In this document: positions 139-10,410 of the stretch, in pieces
Position numbering within the stretch: the first letter of the stretch is position 1
How the letters are laid out: every line of letters starts with the position of its first letter
DNA from: an uncultured Ruminococcus sp.
GTDB lineage: Bacteria > Bacillota > Clostridia > Oscillospirales > Acutalibacteraceae
Direction: 5' to 3'
NCBI GenBank assembly: GCA_902799245.1
Contig: CADBZY010000016.1
Location: 1-64,000 of the forward strand
Length of the DNA stretch: 64,000 nt
Notes under the pieces: model-generated
Seen by the model: only the letters and a program-made list of their open reading frames with translations
The model's database searches: none
What the model was told of the DNA's origin: nothing
Made by a program: the position numbers and the translations under genes

Positions 139-3075
139 ATGACAAGCAGGATAACAGATATTTTTAAGGAGGCAGCCGACAGCTACAGCGTCAGGCAGAT
201 CAGCGACGGCGAAGTGACGCGTATACGCTTCACAGACAAATGCAGGGCGATGATCATCTGGGCTGAATTCTGCGAGTACATCGACCGCGAGCTTCTTTTT
301 AAAGCGGAGCACGACATCCGCGAAAGATACGGCTTTTCGTCGGTCATGATCCGACCGAAATTTCCCGAAAAAACATTCGGCAAATCAGTGCTCGACGATA
401 TGATCATGGAACTGAAACGCCGGATCTCCACCGTCAACGGCTCTTTTGTCAATTGCAGATGGACGTGGGACGCGGCGGACAATTCCGTCAGGTGTGAGTT
501 GGCGCACAACGCGATCAAGCTGCTGGAGGATAAGCATTTTTGCGAGGAATTTGTCAATCTGATACACGACGAATTCAGCAAGAATGTCGATATAGTGCTG
601 AGTTTTGACAAATCCGGTTCGAGAATCGTTCCGATACCGGAGCCTGTTCCCCAACCGGCATCCGAAGCGAAGCCTTCGTCAGCTCCAGCCGAACCGCCTC
701 CGTGGGAATCGGCTCCCGTGCCCGACCGTCCGGAATTCACCGGAGAGGTCAGGGCCAAGAAGGTCAAGGTGCAGGAAGGCCCTGCCAACCTCACCTTTGA
801 GGGAATACCCGAAAGGTATCACGATCCGGAGATTATTTACGGCACACCCAAGAGCATTCCGGCGGTAAAGATGGCGGATCTGAACCCGAATTACAAAAAG
901 GTTACGGTCTACGGCGAGATGTTCAGCTATTCGGTAAAGGACACCAAGGCGGGCGACAAGAAAATCGTTTCGTTTGCCCTGACCGACAAGACATCTTCCG
1001 TGCCGGTCAAGATGATCGTCAAAAAGGAAGACAGTGATTTTCTCAGTATGCTCGGTGACGGCGTCTGCGCCGCTGTGCAGGGCGAATATAAATTCGACGA
1101 CTTCGACCATGAATTTGCCATCCGGCCGCAGTGTATTGCCTCCATGAAGGAGACAAAGCGCACCGACAATTCACCGGTGAAGCGCGTCGAGCTTCACATG
1201 CATACCAACATGTCCGCCATGGACGCGATGACGCCTACCAAGAAGCTGGTAAAACGAGCCGCCGACTGGGGCATGACCGCCATCGCCATTACCGATCACG
1301 GCGTGGCGCAGGCGTTTCCCGACGCGATGAATGCCGCCAAAGCCTGCAAGAAGGACGGCAAGCCGATCAAGATACTCTACGGCATTGAAGCATACTATAT
1401 TGACGACATGGTCGATATTGTCAAGGGCGAGGACGATCGCCAGATTGACGGCGAATTCATTGTGTTCGACCTTGAAACCACGGGTCTCAGCGCGACCACC
1501 GAGAGAATCACCGAGATCGGCGCCGTGCGCTACAAGGGCGGCGAGATTTTAGATAAATTCAACACTTTCGTAAATCCCCATATGCCGATTCCTCCGAAAA
1601 TCGTGGAGCTGACCGGCATCACCGATGAAATGGTAAAAGACGCGCCGGACGAAATCGACGCGGTCAAAGAATTTCTCTCCTACTGCGGCGAGAATCCCAT
1701 CTTCGTCGCACACAACGCCAATTTCGATATTGGCTTCATGAAGGCAGCCTGTGAACGCTGCGGGATTGCTTTCAACCCCGTTTACATCGATACCGTTCCG
1801 CTGGCGCGAGCGCTTCATCCGACGCTCAAGAATCACAAGCTCGACACCGTGGGCGAATATCTCGAAATACCGCCCTTCGAGCATCACCGGGCATGTGACG
1901 ACGCGCTGGCCTTAGCGCAGATTGTGCAGAAGGAATTCGAGCTGCTGGTCAAGGAATACCAGGTGAATTCCGTCAAGGACATCAACACAAAGGCAAAGTC
2001 CACCGACACCACCAAGCTGCGTCCGAATCACATGATCATCATCGCGCAGAACCTTGTGGGACTTAAGAATCTCTACAAGCTGATCTCCGCTTCCAACCTG
2101 AAATATTTCCACCGCAAGCCGAGAATTCCGCGCAGTGAGATCATCAAGCGGCGCGAAGGCCTGATTATCGGCAGCGCTTGCGAACAGGGCGAGTTGTACC
2201 AGGCGATTCTCTTGGGACGCAGCGAAGCGGATATTGAAAAGATAGCCGATTTTTACGATTACCTCGAAGTTCAGCCGCTCGGCAACAATGAATTCATGCT
2301 GCGCGACGGCAAGGTCAAGGACAGACAGGGACTCATTGACATCAACAAGAAAATTATAGACCTCGGCGACAAGCTCGGCAAGCCGGTCGTCGGTACCTGC
2401 GACGTGCATTTCATCGATCCGGAGGATTCGGAGTTCCGAAAGGTGCTGATGGTGCAGCAGGGCTTTACCGACGCGGACAAACAGGCGCCGCTTTACCTGC
2501 GCACTACGGAGGAAATGCTTTCCGAATTCGACTATCTGCCGCCGGAAAAGGCGTATGAGATCGTCGTCACCAATACCAATAAAATTGCCGATATGGTGGA
2601 GGAAATCAAGCCGATTCCCGACGGCGTTTTCCCGCCTTCCATCGACGGCGCGGAACAGCAGCTCCGCGACATCTCCACCGCAAGGGCGCACGAGCTGTAC
2701 GGTGACCCGCTGCCGGAATACGTGCAGGCGCGGCTTGACAAGGAGCTGAATTCCATCATAGGCAACGGCTTTGCGGTCATGTACATGACCGCGAGGAAAA
2801 CGGCTATCTGGTCGGCTCCCGAGGTTCTGTCGGTTCGTCTTTTGTCGCCACCATGTCGGGCATTTCGGAGGTCAATCCCCTTGCGCCGCATTATGTCTGC
2901 CCCAATTGCAAGTGGAGCCAGTTCTTTGAAAAAAGCCTGGAATACGGATCCGGCTTCGACCTGCCGCCGAAAAAATGTCCCCAGTGCGGCGCGGAACTCA
3001 ACCGCGACGGACATGAGATACCGTTTGAAACCTTCCTCGGCTTCAACGGCGACAAACAGCCGGATATCGACCTGA
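139..3075 (+). CDS. polC: DNA polymerase III PolC, N-terminal part (frameshifted)
   Basis: Gram-positive replicative polymerase. The ATG follows AAGGAG at 121-126. Visible in order: N-terminal domain (to about residue 190), a proline-rich linker, an OB-fold (about 250-335), a PHP domain (from about 350, [14 protein letters not shown] and ITDHG), an inserted DnaQ-type 3'-5' exonuclease (from about 442, FDLETTG, ending HRACDDA), then the start of the polymerase domain up to [11 protein letters not shown] near 2787. Downstream the frame is wrong: family proteins continue with a Lys-containing stretch and then a GYLVGSRGS motif, which here is found in another frame from about 2793. Compared with the family about 22 nt are missing. 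The last 95 or so codons to 3075 are therefore out-of-frame tail. Together with the next entry the gene spans about 1450 codons, normal for PolC. Confidence 0.9.
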
Positions 3076-4499
3076 ATTTCTCCGGCGAGGTACAGTCCAA
3101 GGTGCATAAGTACACGGAAGAGCTTTTCGGCAAGGACAACGTCTTTAAAGCCGGCACCATTTCCACCGTCGCCGAAAAGACCGCCTACGGCTATGTGAAG
3201 GGCTATGAGGAAAAAATGGGTCTTCACCTGCCGGCCGCGGAGATCGAACGTCTGAAACAGGGCTGTATGGGCGTCAAATCCACCACGGGTCAGCACCCGG
3301 GCGGCATGGTCGTTGTGCCGAGGGATATGGAGATCGAGGACTTCTGCCCCGTGCAGCATCCTGCCGATAAGAAGGATTCCGACACCATTACGACCCACTT
3401 CGACTTTCATTCCATACACGACACCATTCTGAAACTTGACGAACTCGGACACGATGTGCCGACCATCTATAAATATCTGGAAGAATACACCGGCGTGCCG
3501 ATTTCCGGCATCACCATGAGCGATCCGCAGGTCATGAGCCTGTTCACTTCTACCGAGGCGTTAGGCATTACGGAAGAACAGTGCATGAGCAAGACCGGCA
3601 CCTTCTCGCTGCCGGAGGTCGGAACGAATTTTGTCCGTCAGATGCTCATCGATACGCAGCCCAAAACCTTCTCCGACCTGCTCCAGATCGCGGGTCTGTC
3701 CCACGGCACCGACGTTTACCTCGGCAACGCGCAGGAACTGATTGCCAACGGCATCTGCTCCATTTCGGAGGTTATCGGAACACGTGACAGCATTATGACC
3801 TACCTCATCGCCAAAGGCGTTCCCAATCAGATGTCCTTCAAGATCATGGAAATCGTGCGTAAGGGCAACGCCAAGAAGCTGCTCACCGAGGAACATGTGC
3901 AGACCATGAAGGACAACGGCGTTCCTGACTGGTACATCGATTCCTGCTTCAAGATCAAATACATGTTCCCCAAGGCGCACGCGGCGGCCTATATGATCGC
4001 TACGCTCCGTCTCGGCTGGTACAAGGTGCATACGCCGGAGGAATACTACGCAGCCTACTTCACGGTGCGCGCGGACGAATTCGACGCGGAACTGGCAACC
4101 TCCGACATGAAAAATATCAAGGCGGTTATCAATGAGCTGGACGCAAAGGGCAGAGGCGCGACGGCGAAGGAGCAGAACAAGCTCGCCACGTTGCAGATTC
4201 TCAACGAAGCCCGTGAACGCGGCGTGGTGTTTCTTCCGGTCGATCTCTATAAGAGTGACGCTAAGAAATTTCTCATGGAGGGCAAGCAGGTGCGTCTGCC
4301 CTTCACCACATTGAAGGGGCTGGGCGAAGCGGCGGCCATCAGCCTTGTGGATTCCCGCGCGGACGGGTATCAGTTCATGTCCAAGAGCGATGTGCAGATG
4401 CGCTCCGGCGTTTCCAAGAGCGTTATGGAAATATTGGAGAATGCAGGCGTACTCAGCGGCATGGCGGAAAGCAATCAGGTCAGCCTGTTCGATTTCTGA
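2853..4499 (+). CDS. polC: DNA polymerase III PolC, C-terminal part (frameshifted)
   Basis: This reading frame is open from about 2793 and carries the rest of PolC: the conserved [17 protein letters not shown] region, the zinc finger (CPNC and CPQCG, about 2895-2995), the catalytic PDIDLNF motif with its metal-binding aspartates (about 3060-3077), KLDELGHD, and the C-terminal helix-hairpin-helix region. The ATG at 2853 is only the first ATG in this frame and lies inside a conserved segment, so it is not a natural gene start. The nearest parsimonious reading is one gene broken by a small deletion or assembly error near 2787-2793. PolC is normally essential in Firmicutes, so true loss would be surprising. 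It ends 120 bp before the putative his promoter. Confidence 0.9.
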
Positions 4500-7105: not shown

Positions 7106-8320
7106 ATGAAAAAAATAACGTTCATGAAAAAGGCTGCATTGCTGCTGGCAGCCGCTATGCTGTTTCCAATGTTTGCCGCAGGCTGTGAATCCGCGCAGAA
7201 CATCATCAAGCAGCGTGAACGCGCCGATGAAGTGAGCAAGCTCGCCGAGGCATACATGCAGGAAAAGTACAATCGCGGCTTCAAAGTAAGTAAGTGTGAA
7301 GCGGCGGCCGGCGATGAATATGAAGGCGACTTCTTTATTTCGTTTAACGGAGGCGTACACGCATTCTACGATACCGACGAGGATTTGTTTTTTGATGACC
7401 GTCAGTCGGATTCCATCAACGAACTGATTATGCGCGAAATCTGGAGACCCTTGTTTGAAAGCCTGAAAGTGCCGTATGATAATATTAACGACCAGACACA
7501 GACCTTCAACATGGTCTACCGTGTGGAACGCGGCGGCAAAGTGACTAAATACAGTATGTATCACGATAACTATGAAGTCACCCCGCAGTATTTTGCGGTG
7601 AGAAGCAATCTGTCTGTGACAACAGACAACATTATCTTTGTCACAGAGAATCGCGGAGAATGCAAGACTGTTTTTGAAAAGATCAGTGAAACCATCGGTA
7701 CCTATTTCAAGGGGCAGGCCAAAGGCGAGATGAATGTATATGCCGTTTCCAATGATCTTCATTCGAAACTGGATTTTGATGCAGAGTCTATTGATGAGAC
7801 GACAGAGGGCGTTGTAGCGCATCTTTACTTCGGAAACAGAAAATACTGCGCTTATACCGGTTTTTCAAAAGTGACAGAAGGTCTTTACGGCAACATCTGT
7901 CATTTAAGCGAAATGATACTGAATGACGGCGACATTATTCTTACTCCCGTTGATGACTTTGAAACTGTCAAAAAGAATATCGTTGAGAACATGGACAGCA
8001 AAGAGATAGGAATCTTAGACAAGTATACAGGCAAAAAACGTGACATCGATTTTGGAGATGCTATTTACAAAGTCGAAATCACTTCGAGGCTCAATCAAAG
8101 TAATTGGGAGAACATTACACTTGCATTCGTGATGAAGGACAGCGACGCTCCGATCGAAAATTACGCAGAAATAAACGAGCAGGAGCGCAGTTTCTTTGGT
8201 TACAACATGAACGGTACGGAATTCAATGCTACCTGTCTCTGTTCGCAAAACAGCCGCTCCGTGATGTTTAAATACAAGGTAGGCGACGAGGTTTACTTCT
8301 GGTTCGGAAGTCAGAAATAA
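7106..8320 (+). CDS. Predicted lipoprotein of unknown function
   Basis: The 404-aa product has a type II signal peptide: KK, a hydrophobic stretch, then FAAGC with the lipidated Cys about residue 27. The mature part begins with a short helical segment rich in charged residues. I recognise no enzymatic motif in the rest. ATG 7106 is preceded by AAGGGGG at 7091-7097. It lies between GNAT and the DIP1984-family gene (14 bp downstream), inside the interrupted his cluster. It should be anchored to the outer face of the membrane. It is AT-richer than its neighbours, which may mean separate origin. Confidence 0.75.
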   Translation: MKKITFMKKAALLLAAAMLFPMFAAGCESAQNIIKQRERADEVSKLAEAYMQEKYNRGFKVSKCEAAAGDEYEGDFFISFNGGVHAFYDTDEDLFFDDRQSDSINELIMREIWRPLFESLKVPYDNINDQTQTFNMVYRVERGGKVTKYSMYHDNYEVTPQYFAVRSNLSVTTDNIIFVTENRGECKTVFEKISETIGTYFKGQAKGEMNVYAVSNDLHSKLDFDAESIDETTEGVVAHLYFGNRKYCAYTGFSKVTEGLYGNICHLSEMILNDGDIILTPVDDFETVKKNIVENMDSKEIGILDKYTGKKRDIDFGDAIYKVEITSRLNQSNWENITLAFVMKDSDAPIENYAEINEQERSFFGYNMNGTEFNATCLCSQNSRSVMFKYKVGDEVYFWFGSQK

Positions 8321-8334
8321 CGGAGGAAAACAGT

Positions 8335-8793
8335 ATGAAATTAGCAGAAGCTTTACAGGAACGAGCGGATTTAAATATCAGTATTCAGCAGCTCAAGAAC
8401 CGACTGGAAAATAATGCCATCGTCCAGGAAGGCGAGAAACCCACCGAAAACCCCGGTGATTTGCAATGGGAGCTTGACAACAGCATTAAGCGTCTGACAT
8501 GGCTCATTAGCCGGATCAATATTACCAACTGCCTCACGCAGGTGAACGGCCAGACGTTGACCGAACTGATAGCGCAAAAGGATACTCTTTCTTTGAAGCT
8601 GTCAATTTACAGAGATCTGGTCAATACGGCAGGTCATTGTTCATACCGTGCGCGTCAGACGGAGATCAAGATGCTTCCCACCCTTCCGGTGGCGGATCTT
8701 CAAAAGCAGGTTGACCGCATGGCAAAAGATCTTCGTTTGCTGGATAACCTTCTGCAGCAGACCAACTGGACAACAAATCTTATAGAAGAATAA
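8335..8793 (+). CDS. DIP1984-family protein (formerly annotated septicolysin-like)
   Basis: A 152-aa, mostly helical protein opening MKLAEALQERADLNISIQQL and carrying NNAIVQEGEKPTENP, which I recognise as the signature of the DIP1984 (DUF6847) family. No catalytic motif is visible and the molecular function is not established. Heptad-like Leu and Ile spacing suggests helical bundles. GGAGG at 8322-8326 gives an 8-nt spacing to ATG. It is the last gene of the insert between hisG and hisD. Immediately downstream lies a promoter-like sequence and a highly structured, untranslated region, which may be functionally linked. Confidence 0.75.
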   Translation: MKLAEALQERADLNISIQQLKNRLENNAIVQEGEKPTENPGDLQWELDNSIKRLTWLISRINITNCLTQVNGQTLTELIAQKDTLSLKLSIYRDLVNTAGHCSYRARQTEIKMLPTLPVADLQKQVDRMAKDLRLLDNLLQQTNWTTNLIEE

Positions 8794-8796
8794 AAT
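8767..8796 (+). promoter_or_regulatory. Candidate promoter for the structured RNA
   Basis: TGGACA (8767-8772), 18-bp spacer, TAAAAT (8791-8796). It overlaps the 3' end of the DIP1984-family gene and predicts a start near 8803, exactly where the structured region begins. Confidence 0.45.
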
Positions 8797-8802
8797 AATT
8801 TT

Positions 8803-8982
8803 ATACAGCGGTAGCGGAAAACAGGGCGAATGTCACCGAATCAGCCTGAAAACTGATTTTCTTTAGGATAAGCCGCAGGGCAGGCTTGACGGGTTCGAGT
8901 CCCAGAGAATTGTTAGCCCCGATTGCGTACAAATGCACGGTTACTTCTTATTGTTATCACCAGGACATTGACTGCATTCCGT
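8803..8982 (+). ncRNA. Candidate structured non-coding RNA with tRNA-like arms
   Basis: There is no credible reading frame here. By hand I find a closing long-range helix (8815-8819 with 8977-8981, 8822-8824 with 8972-8974, 8829-8834 with 8964-8969). It encloses the hairpins 8839-8844/8853-8858 (6 bp, 8-nt loop), 8870-8874/8883-8887 (5 bp), and GGG/CCC around a TTCGAGT loop at 8894-8900. That loop fits the tRNA T-loop consensus. AGCGGTAG at 8807-8814 resembles a D-loop. The arms do not add up to a normal tRNA. Size and architecture recall stand-alone clostridial RNAs such as the raiA motif, or tRNA-mimicking Y RNAs, but I could not verify either. Confidence 0.55.
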
Positions 8983-9004
8983 GAGGGAGGGCAAGGGGAA
9001 AAGC

Positions 9005-9052
9005 GCAGCTTTGCAAGCAGATATGCTTTCGCACATCCGCTTGCAAAGCTGC
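9005..9052. repeat. 14-bp perfect inverted repeat
   Basis: GCAGCTTTGCAAGC at 9005-9018 and its exact complement at 9039-9052 enclose a 20-nt loop. No T-run follows on either strand, so it is not a classic terminator. It could protect the 3' end of the upstream RNA. Downstream, 9053-9110 holds short AATGAATAGTGAATA-like repeat sequence and nothing else. Confidence 0.55.
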
Positions 9053-9123
9053 TAATGAATAGTGAATACTGAAGAATGAATGAGCGCTTCGCTCTGAATT
9101 GTATTTTGAGGAGGAAATTTTAC

Positions 9124-10410
9124 ATGATAAAGATAGTGAAGGCGGACGGTGTCGCCGAGAGGGAGTTTCTCAGTAAGCTCCGCGAGAGAAGCGGCGAGAC
9201 TGACAGAAAGGTGACGGAGATCGTTTCCGGTATTCTTTCTGACGTCCGTGAAAAGGGTGACGAAGCAGTCAAGGCATACACCGCAAAATTCGACTGTGCC
9301 AGCCCGCAATATTTTGAAGTGCCGAGGGAAGTCATTGACGGCGCGGAAAAGAAATGTGACAGTGAATTAATCGCCGCCATGAAGAGAGCCGCGGCGAATA
9401 TAAAAGATTTCCACGAGCGGCAGGTGCAGCAGAGCTGGCTGACATCCAAGGAAAACGGCGTTATCTTGGGGCAGAGAATCCGCGGTCTGCACAGGGTCGG
9501 CGTCTACGTTCCCGGCGGAACGGCGGCACTGTTTTCATCGGTGCTGATGAATGTCATTCCCGCCAAGATTGCAGGCGTGAAGGAAATCATTATGGCAACG
9601 CCTCCTTGCAAGGACGGCAGCGCCAACCGTGAAATCCTCGCGGCAGCCGCCATCGCCGGCGTGGACAGGGTGTTCCTCTGCGGCGGCGCGCAGGCGATCG
9701 GCGCGCTTGCCTACGGCACGGCTTCCATACCCAAGGTTGACAAGATTGTCGGCCCCGGCAATATTTTTGTCGCCACAGCGAAAAAGCTGGTTTACGGCGC
9801 TGTCGATATTGATATGATCGCCGGCCCCAGCGAAATTCTTATTGTAGCCGATGAAAAGGCGAATCCGAAATTCCTTGCAGCAGACCTCATGAGTCAGGCG
9901 GAGCACGATAAACTTGCCTCGGCGATTCTTGTCACCACAAGCGCCGAGCTTGCCGAACAGACAGACAAAGAGCTTGCCCGTCAGTGCGCTTTGCTCTCCC
10001 GTAACGAGATCATTGAGGAATCCATCGCCAACTACGGCGGCATCATCGTCTGCAACACGCTCGATGAAGCGGTGGATATGGCAAACGAGCTTGCGCCGGA
10101 GCACCTGGAAGTCTGCGTGGAGAACCCGATGGAATATATAGGCAGACTTGACAACGCCGGTTCCGTATTCCTCGGCAATTACGCTCCCGAACCGCTGGGC
10201 GATTATTTTGCCGGGCCGAATCACGTGCTTCCCACCAGCGGAACAGCGAGATTCTTCTCACCGCTGTCGGTGGATACATTCATCAAGAAGTCCAGCTTCA
10301 TCTATTACAATGAGCCTGCTCTGCGCGAGGTCAAGGACGATGTGGTGATCATGGCGGAGAATGAAAGCCTTACCGCGCACGCCAATGCGATTAAGGTTAG
10401 ATTTGAATAA
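9124..10410 (+). CDS. hisD: Histidinol dehydrogenase
   Basis: Catalyses the final two NAD-dependent, zinc-dependent oxidations of histidinol to histidine. The 428-aa protein shows the family segments VGVYVPGGTAALFSSVLM, GAQAIGALAYGT, GPGNIFVATAKKLV, IDMIAGPSEILIVAD, AEHD (zinc ligand region) and a C-terminal PTSGTARFFSPLSV. ATG 9124 has GAGGAGG directly upstream at 9110-9116. The same frame is open to 9076, but that part is repeat-derived. It is separated from hisG by three non-his genes and a structured RNA, and is followed by hisC after 32 bp. Confidence 0.96.
   Translation: MIKIVKADGVAEREFLSKLRERSGETDRKVTEIVSGILSDVREKGDEAVKAYTAKFDCASPQYFEVPREVIDGAEKKCDSELIAAMKRAAANIKDFHERQVQQSWLTSKENGVILGQRIRGLHRVGVYVPGGTAALFSSVLMNVIPAKIAGVKEIIMATPPCKDGSANREILAAAAIAGVDRVFLCGGAQAIGALAYGTASIPKVDKIVGPGNIFVATAKKLVYGAVDIDMIAGPSEILIVADEKANPKFLAADLMSQAEHDKLASAILVTTSAELAEQTDKELARQCALLSRNEIIEESIANYGGIIVCNTLDEAVDMANELAPEHLEVCVENPMEYIGRLDNAGSVFLGNYAPEPLGDYFAGPNHVLPTSGTARFFSPLSVDTFIKKSSFIYYNEPALREVKDDVVIMAENESLTAHANAIKVRFE

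What the first reader, a model, noticed from the sequence alone, without database searches (positions are those of the whole stretch)
8803..8982. Structured RNA with tRNA-like arms inside the his cluster, beside a DIP1984 gene
The spacer has no reading frame but folds well by hand: a multi-part closing helix over 8815-8834 and 8964-8981, an internal 6-bp hairpin, a 5-bp hairpin, and a GGG/CCC hairpin capped by TTCGAGT, which fits the T-loop consensus, preceded by a D-loop-like AGCGGTAG. A promoter-like TGGACA-18-TAAAAT ends just upstream. Sequence evidence is direct; identity with raiA, a Y-RNA-like tRNA mimic, or a new class is inference.
Basis: partly seen in the sequence, partly recalled or inferred. 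Interest (0 to 1): 0.8.

Follow-up and report, generated by a model that had tools for sequence, protein, structure and literature searches.

The report
Unlisted structured RNA paired with DIP1984
Directly behind a small bacterial gene of unknown function lies a compact, knotted RNA of about 190 letters that accompanies this gene in bacteria from several phyla, so gene and RNA probably work as one unit, and nothing like the RNA was found in the RNA-family library searched.

Summary
Alone it folds no better than chance (z = 0.63); comparison settles it. The same RNA follows the DIP1984 (DUF6847) gene in 78 of 80 public loci; the other two reach a contig end. Over 92 distinct sequences, 93.6% of cells in 34 proposed pairs are paired, with 646 two-sided changes against 174 in shuffles; slid versions give 33-46%. 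It has a closing helix, two hairpins, two pseudoknots, an optional T-loop arm and a G-rich tail. Median gap to the stop codon is 8 nt. No Rfam family matches it, raiA included. Gene and RNA are absent together from two congeners. Against a strict link, ten genomes in a spirochete's phylum have DIP1984 without detectable RNA; most of their proteins have lost residues constant in RNA-bearing ones (Q31, G33, N62, T64, N65, R134) while eleven other conserved residues stay. I infer a two-component protein-RNA unit with these residues as candidate contacts. What it does is unknown. I found no published description in the partial literature held.

The parts
8335..8793 (+). DIP1984 family gene (Pfam PF20935 DUF6847; NCBIfam NF038048), 152 aa, the RNA's partner gene
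   Evidence: PF20935 157.6 bits E 2.5e-46; NF038048 169.9 bits; PDB 3kdq is a solved relative named 'uncharacterized conserved protein'
8808..8999 (+). structured RNA (whole conserved element), 14 nt after the DIP1984 stop codon
   Evidence: model R1: 143.1 bits, E 3.3e-40 (the window is one of the 42 sequences in R1); covariation over 92 distinct sequences; gap
8810..8814 (+).
   Evidence: G, T and A among the unpaired positions conserved in at least 90% of 84 non-redundant copies; independent of the T arm
8814..8824 (+). 5' strands of closing helices P1 (8814-8817) and P1b (8822-8824)
   Evidence: P1 95.8% and P1b 89.6% of cells paired, all pairs with two-sided changes
8829..8834 (+). P2 5' strand, AATGTC
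   Evidence: 97.6% of cells paired with 8964-8969, all six pairs with two-sided changes
8836..8848 (+). PK1, 8836-8838 with 8846-8848, inside the P3 loop; weak in the window (8837-8847 is C-U)
   Evidence: 74.1% of cells paired over the family; window mapping
8840..8857 (+). hairpin P3, 8840-8844 with 8853-8857
   Evidence: 95.3% of cells paired, five of five pairs with two-sided changes
8871..8886 (+). hairpin P4, 8871-8874 with 8883-8886
   Evidence: 96.7% of cells paired, four of four pairs with two-sided changes
8878..8881 (+). PK2 5' strand GGGC in the P4 loop, pairs with GCCC 8916-8919
   Evidence: 96.1% of cells paired; two of four pairs with two-sided changes, one of them GC to AU in 27 sequences
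8891..8903 (+). T-arm-like hairpin, GGG TTCGAGT CCC
   Evidence: 96.8% of cells paired where present; missing in 23 of 96 copies
8916..8919 (+). PK2 3' strand, GCCC
   Evidence: window mapping
8920..8963 (+). central conserved stretch without a covarying helix (..GTACAAA..ACC)
   Evidence: no helix among the best mutual-information pairs; several positions conserved in at least 90%
8964..8982 (+). 3' strands of P2 (8964-8969), P1b (8972-8974) and P1 (8979-8982)
8983..8999 (+). conserved G-rich tail GAGGGnGGG..GGGG
   Evidence: tail motif in 92 of 96 copies by a loose pattern; linker base T 50, C 35, A 4, stricter pattern not matched 7

Best explanation
The DIP1984 gene and the roughly 185-nt RNA behind it form one two-component unit. 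The RNA is transcribed with the DIP1984 message as its 3' part, folds into a closed domain (long closing stem, two hairpins, two pseudoknots, optional T-loop arm, G-rich tail), and is bound by the DIP1984 protein, probably through a patch that includes R10, Q31, G33, N62, T64, N65 and R134; protein and RNA then act together as a small ribonucleoprotein. Shown here: the structure, the strand, the linkage, the common presence and absence, and protein residues whose conservation tracks the RNA. Inferred: co-transcription, physical binding, and that the RNA works beyond its own message. The task of the particle is not known.
For: Covariation over 92 distinct sequences. G-U pairs exceed A-C mismatches 155 to 58, which points to the DIP1984 strand. 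Median gap to the stop codon 8 nt, 64 of 73 measured within 40 nt, and no conserved promoter before the RNA. RNA found in 78 of 80 public DIP1984 loci, the other two being cut by the contig end; in all 14 genomes with DIP1984 above the cut-off among 60 relatives; in all 13 among 199 Bacillota, three of them only with filters off. Exactly one match per genome in 35 of 36 genomes or records searched. Two congeners lack both, and the flanking genes abut. R10-Q31-G33-N62-T64-N65-R134 is complete in 38 of 41 RNA-bearing proteins and in none of 11 RNA-less ones, while eleven other conserved positions are all kept in 10 of those 11; an RNA-bearing protein of similar divergence (L143) keeps six of the seven. 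Pfam-matched neighbours are all different.
Against: Ten genomes in the Treponema's phylum carry DIP1984 without a detectable RNA, and two tandem second copies lack it, so the protein can exist alone. DIP1984 is not basic (median pI 6.36 of 33). The residue signature was picked after the fact and rests on about two independent events; A4 (to G) also changes in the RNA-less group, one RNA-less protein (L177) keeps R10, Q31, N62 and N65, and in the second copies only R10 and N65 of the seven are changed. Hits in Acinetobacter and the Enterococcus phage contig are weak (12.7-14.9 bits), and so are some Bacillota ones. No transcript, cleavage or binding data were available, and the fold prediction never finished.
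Confidence: 0.6

Rival explanations
1. The RNA is a cis-acting 3' UTR element that only controls the DIP1984 message (stability, or feedback by bound DIP1984 protein) and has no role away from its message.
For: Tight spacing behind the stop codon, single-copy linkage in 35 of 36 searched, no conserved promoter; would also explain residues that track the RNA if the protein binds its own message.
Against: Elaborate, deeply conserved structure with two pseudoknots and 27 unpaired positions conserved in at least 90% of 84 copies is more than a feedback site usually needs (general knowledge); the RNA is kept when the gap has grown to 210-268 nt (L045, L057, L061) and is present twice in tandem in L032 and L033.
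Confidence: 0.2
2. A toxin-antitoxin or other maintenance module in which RNA and protein neutralise each other (type III-like).
For: Present or absent as a unit within a genus, patchy (13 of 199 Bacillota), common on Acinetobacter plasmids (342 of the 371 plasmid records with a DIP1984 match).
Against: No PADLOC match up to E = 1; the RNA follows the gene and is normally single, whereas type III antitoxin RNAs (recalled) are tandem repeats before the toxin gene; the protein is strongly conserved (18 of 157 alignment columns invariant in 33 sequences); the spirochete-phylum genomes keep the protein without the RNA.
Confidence: 0.1
3. A riboswitch or T-box-like leader for the gene downstream.
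For: The tail AGGGnGGGnA resembles the T-box sequence AGGGUGGNACCGCG (recalled), and a T-loop arm is often present.
Against: After 25 of 74 copies the next open reading frame (rough caller) is on the opposite strand; Pfam-matched neighbours differ; the linker base is T in 50 but C in 35 and A in 4 of 96, which would break CCA pairing; no Rfam match.
Confidence: 0.03
4. A bacterial Y RNA, partner of Ro60, with a tRNA-like module.
For: The window's genome and all six other tested members of its genus have a TROVE gene elsewhere; T-loop arm and GGTAG recall tRNA arms.
Against: TROVE found in only 2 of the other 42 searched genomes carrying the RNA; no Rfam match up to E = 5 or 10; T arm and GGTA are not linked.
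Confidence: 0.02

Closest known systems
raiA / ModT RNA (Rfam RF03072)
   Same: Conserved structured RNA of about 200 nt with two pseudoknots in its updated model, in Bacillota and another phylum, role not settled (PMC11706538, passages and abstract start seen)
   Different: No model match; raiA RNA most often sits by comFC and raiA genes, not DIP1984; L046 carries a raiA RNA elsewhere in the same locus
Bacterial Y RNA with Ro60 (recalled)
   Same: RNA linked to the gene of its protein partner; tRNA-like features suggested
   Different: Partner here is DIP1984; TROVE not found in 40 of 49 searched carriers; no Rfam match
T-box leader (recalled)
   Same: AGGG-n-GG tail and T-loop features
   Different: Lies behind a gene and in 25 of 74 copies faces a convergent reading frame; no Rfam match
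Type III toxin-antitoxin, ToxIN-like (recalled)
   Same: Small protein plus pseudoknotted RNA, moved as a unit
   Different: Order, copy number and RNA repeats differ; no PADLOC match
Ornate RNAs (OLE, ROOL, GOLLD)
   Same: Highly structured bacterial RNAs (PMC12286853, search listing and start of abstract only)
   Different: Much larger (recalled); no Rfam match at gathering score in the window or in 20 loci scanned, apart from one raiA and two tRNAs that lie outside the RNA

Membership tests
raiA RNA (RF03072) | match to the Rfam covariance model | tested here: not met
   no match up to E = 5 (window 8700-9130) or E = 10 (L040); the search can find raiA: 132.5 bits in L046
tRNA / tmRNA | ARAGORN or Rfam tRNA match | tested here: not met
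   0 genes in the window; none in Rfam at gathering score in the window; a sub-threshold tRNA-Sec match, 17.4 of 47 bits, E 0.51, over the Streptomyces copy in L139
bacterial Y RNA | Ro60 partner in the genome | tested here: not met
   TROVE found in 9 of 49 searched RNA-bearing genomes; met in the window's own genus (7 of 7 tested), so not met for the class rather than for this genome
bacterial Y RNA | D-loop and T-loop elbow | tested here: inconclusive
   T arm missing in 23 of 96; GGTA independent of it, p = 1.0; no three-dimensional test
T-box leader | leader of a co-directional downstream gene; Rfam match | tested here: not met
   next open reading frame convergent after 25 of 74 copies; no Rfam match
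DIP1984 protein family | PF20935 and NF038048 above curated cut-off | tested here: met
   157.6 bits, cut-off 27; 169.9 bits, cut-off 70
DIP1984-associated RNA (class described here) | match to model R1 directly 3' of a DIP1984 gene | tested here: met
   143.1 bits at 8808-8999, 14 nt after the stop; the window is one of the 42 training sequences, so the independent support is the covariation and the copies outside the training set
type III toxin-antitoxin | toxicity of the protein neutralised by the RNA | not testable with these tools
   needs expression; no PADLOC match

The most novel reading that the evidence does not exclude
A previously undescribed ribonucleoprotein, made of one small conserved protein and one pseudoknotted RNA, spread as a single two-gene unit through at least four and probably six bacterial phyla, acting in trans on some basic process (for instance on tRNA or the ribosome, suggested only by the optional T-loop arm and the G-rich tail).
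Probability: 0.45. Interest if true: 0.92.

Novelty: categorically new. Interest (0 to 1): 0.85.

Why it matters
Bacterial RNAs conserved across phyla are rare (so also the ModT paper, PMC11706538, passage), and fewer come with a dedicated protein gene. This one would supply the missing half of a protein family of unknown function (DIP1984/DUF6847, with a solved structure, 3kdq), makes a testable prediction of which residues touch the RNA, and would change how a gene labelled 'septicolysin' on Acinetobacter plasmids is read: its company points to RNA work rather than to a cytolysin (inference; the RNA match there is weak).

Tried and rejected
Single-sequence folding: not significant, so not used as evidence. 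raiA, Y RNA, tRNA and T-box identities: rejected as above. Pairing of 5' GGTAG with the conserved ACC, judged by eye on the alignment: rejected, since the second G varies while ACC hardly does. tRNA CCA pairing by the tail: rejected because the U is C or A in 39 of 96. A helix in the central stretch: none among the top mutual-information pairs. Own promoter: rejected. A conserved terminator: only 14 of 73 loci by a simple rule, so left open. Neighbour function: 20 neighbouring open reading frames from 11 loci scanned, some of them possibly not genes; 13 match Pfam, to 13 different kinds of protein. Viral contigs: no relative. phrogs: only a 14.6-bit chance-level match. Literature: DIP1984 occurs in one held paper, seen only as a search listing and abstract start; DUF6847 in none; further searches; passages read and one outline with abstract. 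These cover open-licence PubMed Central only; supplements, preprints and most subscription papers were not seen. The paper on RNA repair systems that I remembered as possibly relevant is not held and I did not see it.

Full report
What was claimed and what is there. The sequence elements are all present. The gene at 8335-8793 is DIP1984 by Pfam PF20935 (157.6 bits) and NCBIfam NF038048. Rfam gives nothing at gathering score in the window, and in a permissive scan of 8700-9130 only chance-level microRNA and snoRNA matches, all of which lie behind the RNA. Folding the window copy alone is no better than shuffled sequence (z = 0.63), so on its own it would prove nothing.

Relatives. A protein search of public genomes kept the best 80 DIP1984 loci (of 429 relatives). 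Printing what follows each gene showed the same element nearly everywhere. It returned 96 matches in 94 sources; L032 and L033, two near-identical loci, each hold two tandem copies, and the two public loci without a match, L085 and L093, end 11 and 90 nt after the matched gene. So 78 of 80 public loci have the RNA and the other two cannot be judged. The permissive Rfam search of a consensus-like copy (L040) found one chance microRNA match; of a Streptomyces copy (L139) three sub-threshold ones, two of them tRNA-like (tRNA-Sec 17.4 bits with a cut-off of 47, tymovirus tRNA-like 12.3 with 40), which reflect the T arm. Twenty whole loci gave two tRNAs and one raiA RNA, none at the RNA.

Structure. 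On A1 the proposed 34 pairs, including two pseudoknots, have 93.0% of cells paired and 203 two-sided changes against 62.0 in shuffles. On the realigned A3 (92 distinct rows) the figures are 93.6% and 646 against 174.3, with 32 of 34 pairs changed on both sides; sliding the partner by one to three columns gives 33-46%. Two cautions: A3 was fitted to the nested part of the structure and leans towards it, and the structure was drawn up from these same sequences, which favours it over slid versions. But A1 was aligned without a structure, and the pseudoknots were not in the model used for A3. Mutual information ranks helix pairs first. PK2 is strong (96.1%), PK1 weaker (74.1%). G-U pairs exceed A-C mismatches 155 to 58, so the transcribed strand is that of DIP1984. 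The 84 non-redundant copies average 54% identity, lowest 21%. The T-arm-like hairpin is optional: missing in 23 of 96.

Linkage. In 60 relatives, 14 genomes have DIP1984 above the cut-off and all 14 have the RNA; a fifteenth RNA (G001) starts at base 4 of its contig, where a gene before it could not be seen. In 199 Bacillota, 13 genomes have DIP1984 above the cut-off; ten had the RNA with strict filters and the other three with filters off. Some scores are low (29.5 bits for L115 and L116, 24.5 for L113, 18.9 for L118). In these two sets no genome had the RNA without DIP1984 apart from the contig-edge case. Among 36 genomes or records behind known loci, 35 had exactly one match (the genomes of L032 and L033, which have two copies, were not among them); the one without was plasmid pAB0057, where a weak match (14.9 bits) appears with filters off. 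Plasmid copies in Streptomyces, Mycolicibacterium, Paracoccus and Picosynechococcus score 40-54 bits, so the pair occurs in Actinomycetota, Pseudomonadota and Cyanobacteriota as well as Bacillota and, by the titles of two metagenome-assembled records, in one Treponema and one Paludibacteraceae genome. In 148 genomes of the latter's phylum only that genome has DIP1984. The 342 Acinetobacter plasmids with a DIP1984 match were sampled in two records only.

Results against a strict link. In 120 genomes of the Treponema's phylum, 11 have DIP1984 above the cut-off (12 genes); only the Treponema has the RNA, beside the gene. For the other ten genomes nothing better than 9.2 bits (E = 0.06) lies near the 11 genes with filters off, and nothing below E = 0.6 was found in the genomes at large, where 150 of 208 to 266 candidates per genome were scored. 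Tandem second DIP1984 copies in two Bacillota genomes (L121, L122) also lack it. So in what was searched the RNA implies DIP1984, but DIP1984 does not always imply the RNA.

A natural experiment in the protein. Compared were 41 proteins with the RNA, the 11 RNA-less proteins of that phylum and the two second copies. Q31 is kept in 41 of 41 against 1 of 11, G33 in 40 of 41 against 0, N62 40 of 41 against 2, T64 40 of 41 against 0, N65 41 of 41 against 1, R134 41 of 41 against 0, and R10 41 of 41 against 4. The full set of seven is present in 38 of 41 (exceptions L096, L140, L143, one residue each) and in none of the 11. A4 also changes (39 of 41 against 0, to G in ten) and E32 partly (40 of 41 against 5, otherwise D). 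The second copies have changed R10 (to K) and N65 (to L) and kept the other five. Eleven other conserved positions are all kept in 10 of 11 RNA-less and 37 of 41 RNA-bearing proteins. One RNA-less protein (L177) keeps R10, Q31, N62 and N65, and one translation (L180) has an unlike N-terminus, by my extraction or a frameshift, which adds noise at the first positions. The Enterococcus contig protein, as divergent as the RNA-less ones (mean identity 0.30), keeps six of the seven residues and has the (weak) RNA, so divergence alone does not explain the loss. The sites were chosen after seeing the data, and the number of independent losses is about two.

Gene order. In the window's genus the pair sits between a gene of unknown family and hisD. 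In G008 and G017, which have neither DIP1984 nor the RNA, the same two neighbours are 31 and 74 nt apart (aligned ends). In 11 loci of other genera the neighbours that match Pfam are all different (MatE, phosphorylase, DHH, glycosyltransferase and others), and after 25 of 74 copies the next open reading frame, by a rough caller, is on the other strand. The gap from stop codon to RNA, measured in 73 of the 79 loci, has median 8 nt and is within 40 nt in 64; in one (L047) the RNA overlaps the end of the open frame. A promoter-like pair is no commoner before the RNA than in shuffles.

Mechanism. The simplest reading is one transcript that carries gene and RNA, with the protein binding the RNA as a small particle. 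Binding is inferred from linkage and residue tracking; no experiment here shows it. The protein is slightly acidic (median pI 6.36 of 33), which does not help the case. The main rival is a cis-acting 3' element that controls its own message. Which of the two holds, and what the particle would act on, is open. In the window's genus Ro60 is also present (7 of 7 tested), so a side role with Ro60 there is not excluded.

Novelty. No Rfam family matches, and the held literature searched shows no RNA linked with DIP1984, septicolysin or DUF6847. Supplementary motif lists of the large RNA-discovery papers were not seen, so an unnamed motif there cannot be excluded.

Noticed in passing
window 139-3075 and 2853-4499: A polymerase-III-alpha-like coding region (name from my reading of the translation, no family search) is split over two overlapping frames, as if by a frameshift near 2850; assembly error or real is unknown.
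   Followed up: no
window 9005-9053: A long hairpin follows the RNA (it drew chance microRNA matches); no T run after it, so not a plain terminator.
   Followed up: partly
L032 and L033, 3463-3669 and 3731-3918: Two tandem copies of the RNA behind one DIP1984 gene.
   Followed up: no
L121, L122 (second copies in G155, G070): Tandem second DIP1984 genes without the RNA, with N65 changed to L and R10 to K.
   Followed up: partly
L046 1578-1739, minus strand: A raiA RNA (132.5 bits) lies about 1.3 kb before a DIP1984-RNA pair in the same locus.
   Followed up: no
L140, L142 (Acinetobacter plasmids): DIP1984 is called septicolysin and treated as a cytolysin in the Acinetobacter plasmid literature (PMC5559437, passage); the window's DIP1984 matches only DUF6847 in Pfam, so the name looks doubtful. 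The Acinetobacter proteins themselves were not scanned.
   Followed up: partly
window 7106-8320: A 404-aa protein with no Pfam match lies directly before DIP1984; it is found before DIP1984 in all 12 DIP1984-bearing congener loci compared, and before hisD in the two congeners without the pair.
   Followed up: no
L182, L183, L184, L185, L189, after the gene: These RNA-less DIP1984 genes are followed by a shared AT-rich stretch with CTTGGGTGGG and an AGGGTGGG-like motif; it might be a different or highly altered RNA.
   Followed up: no
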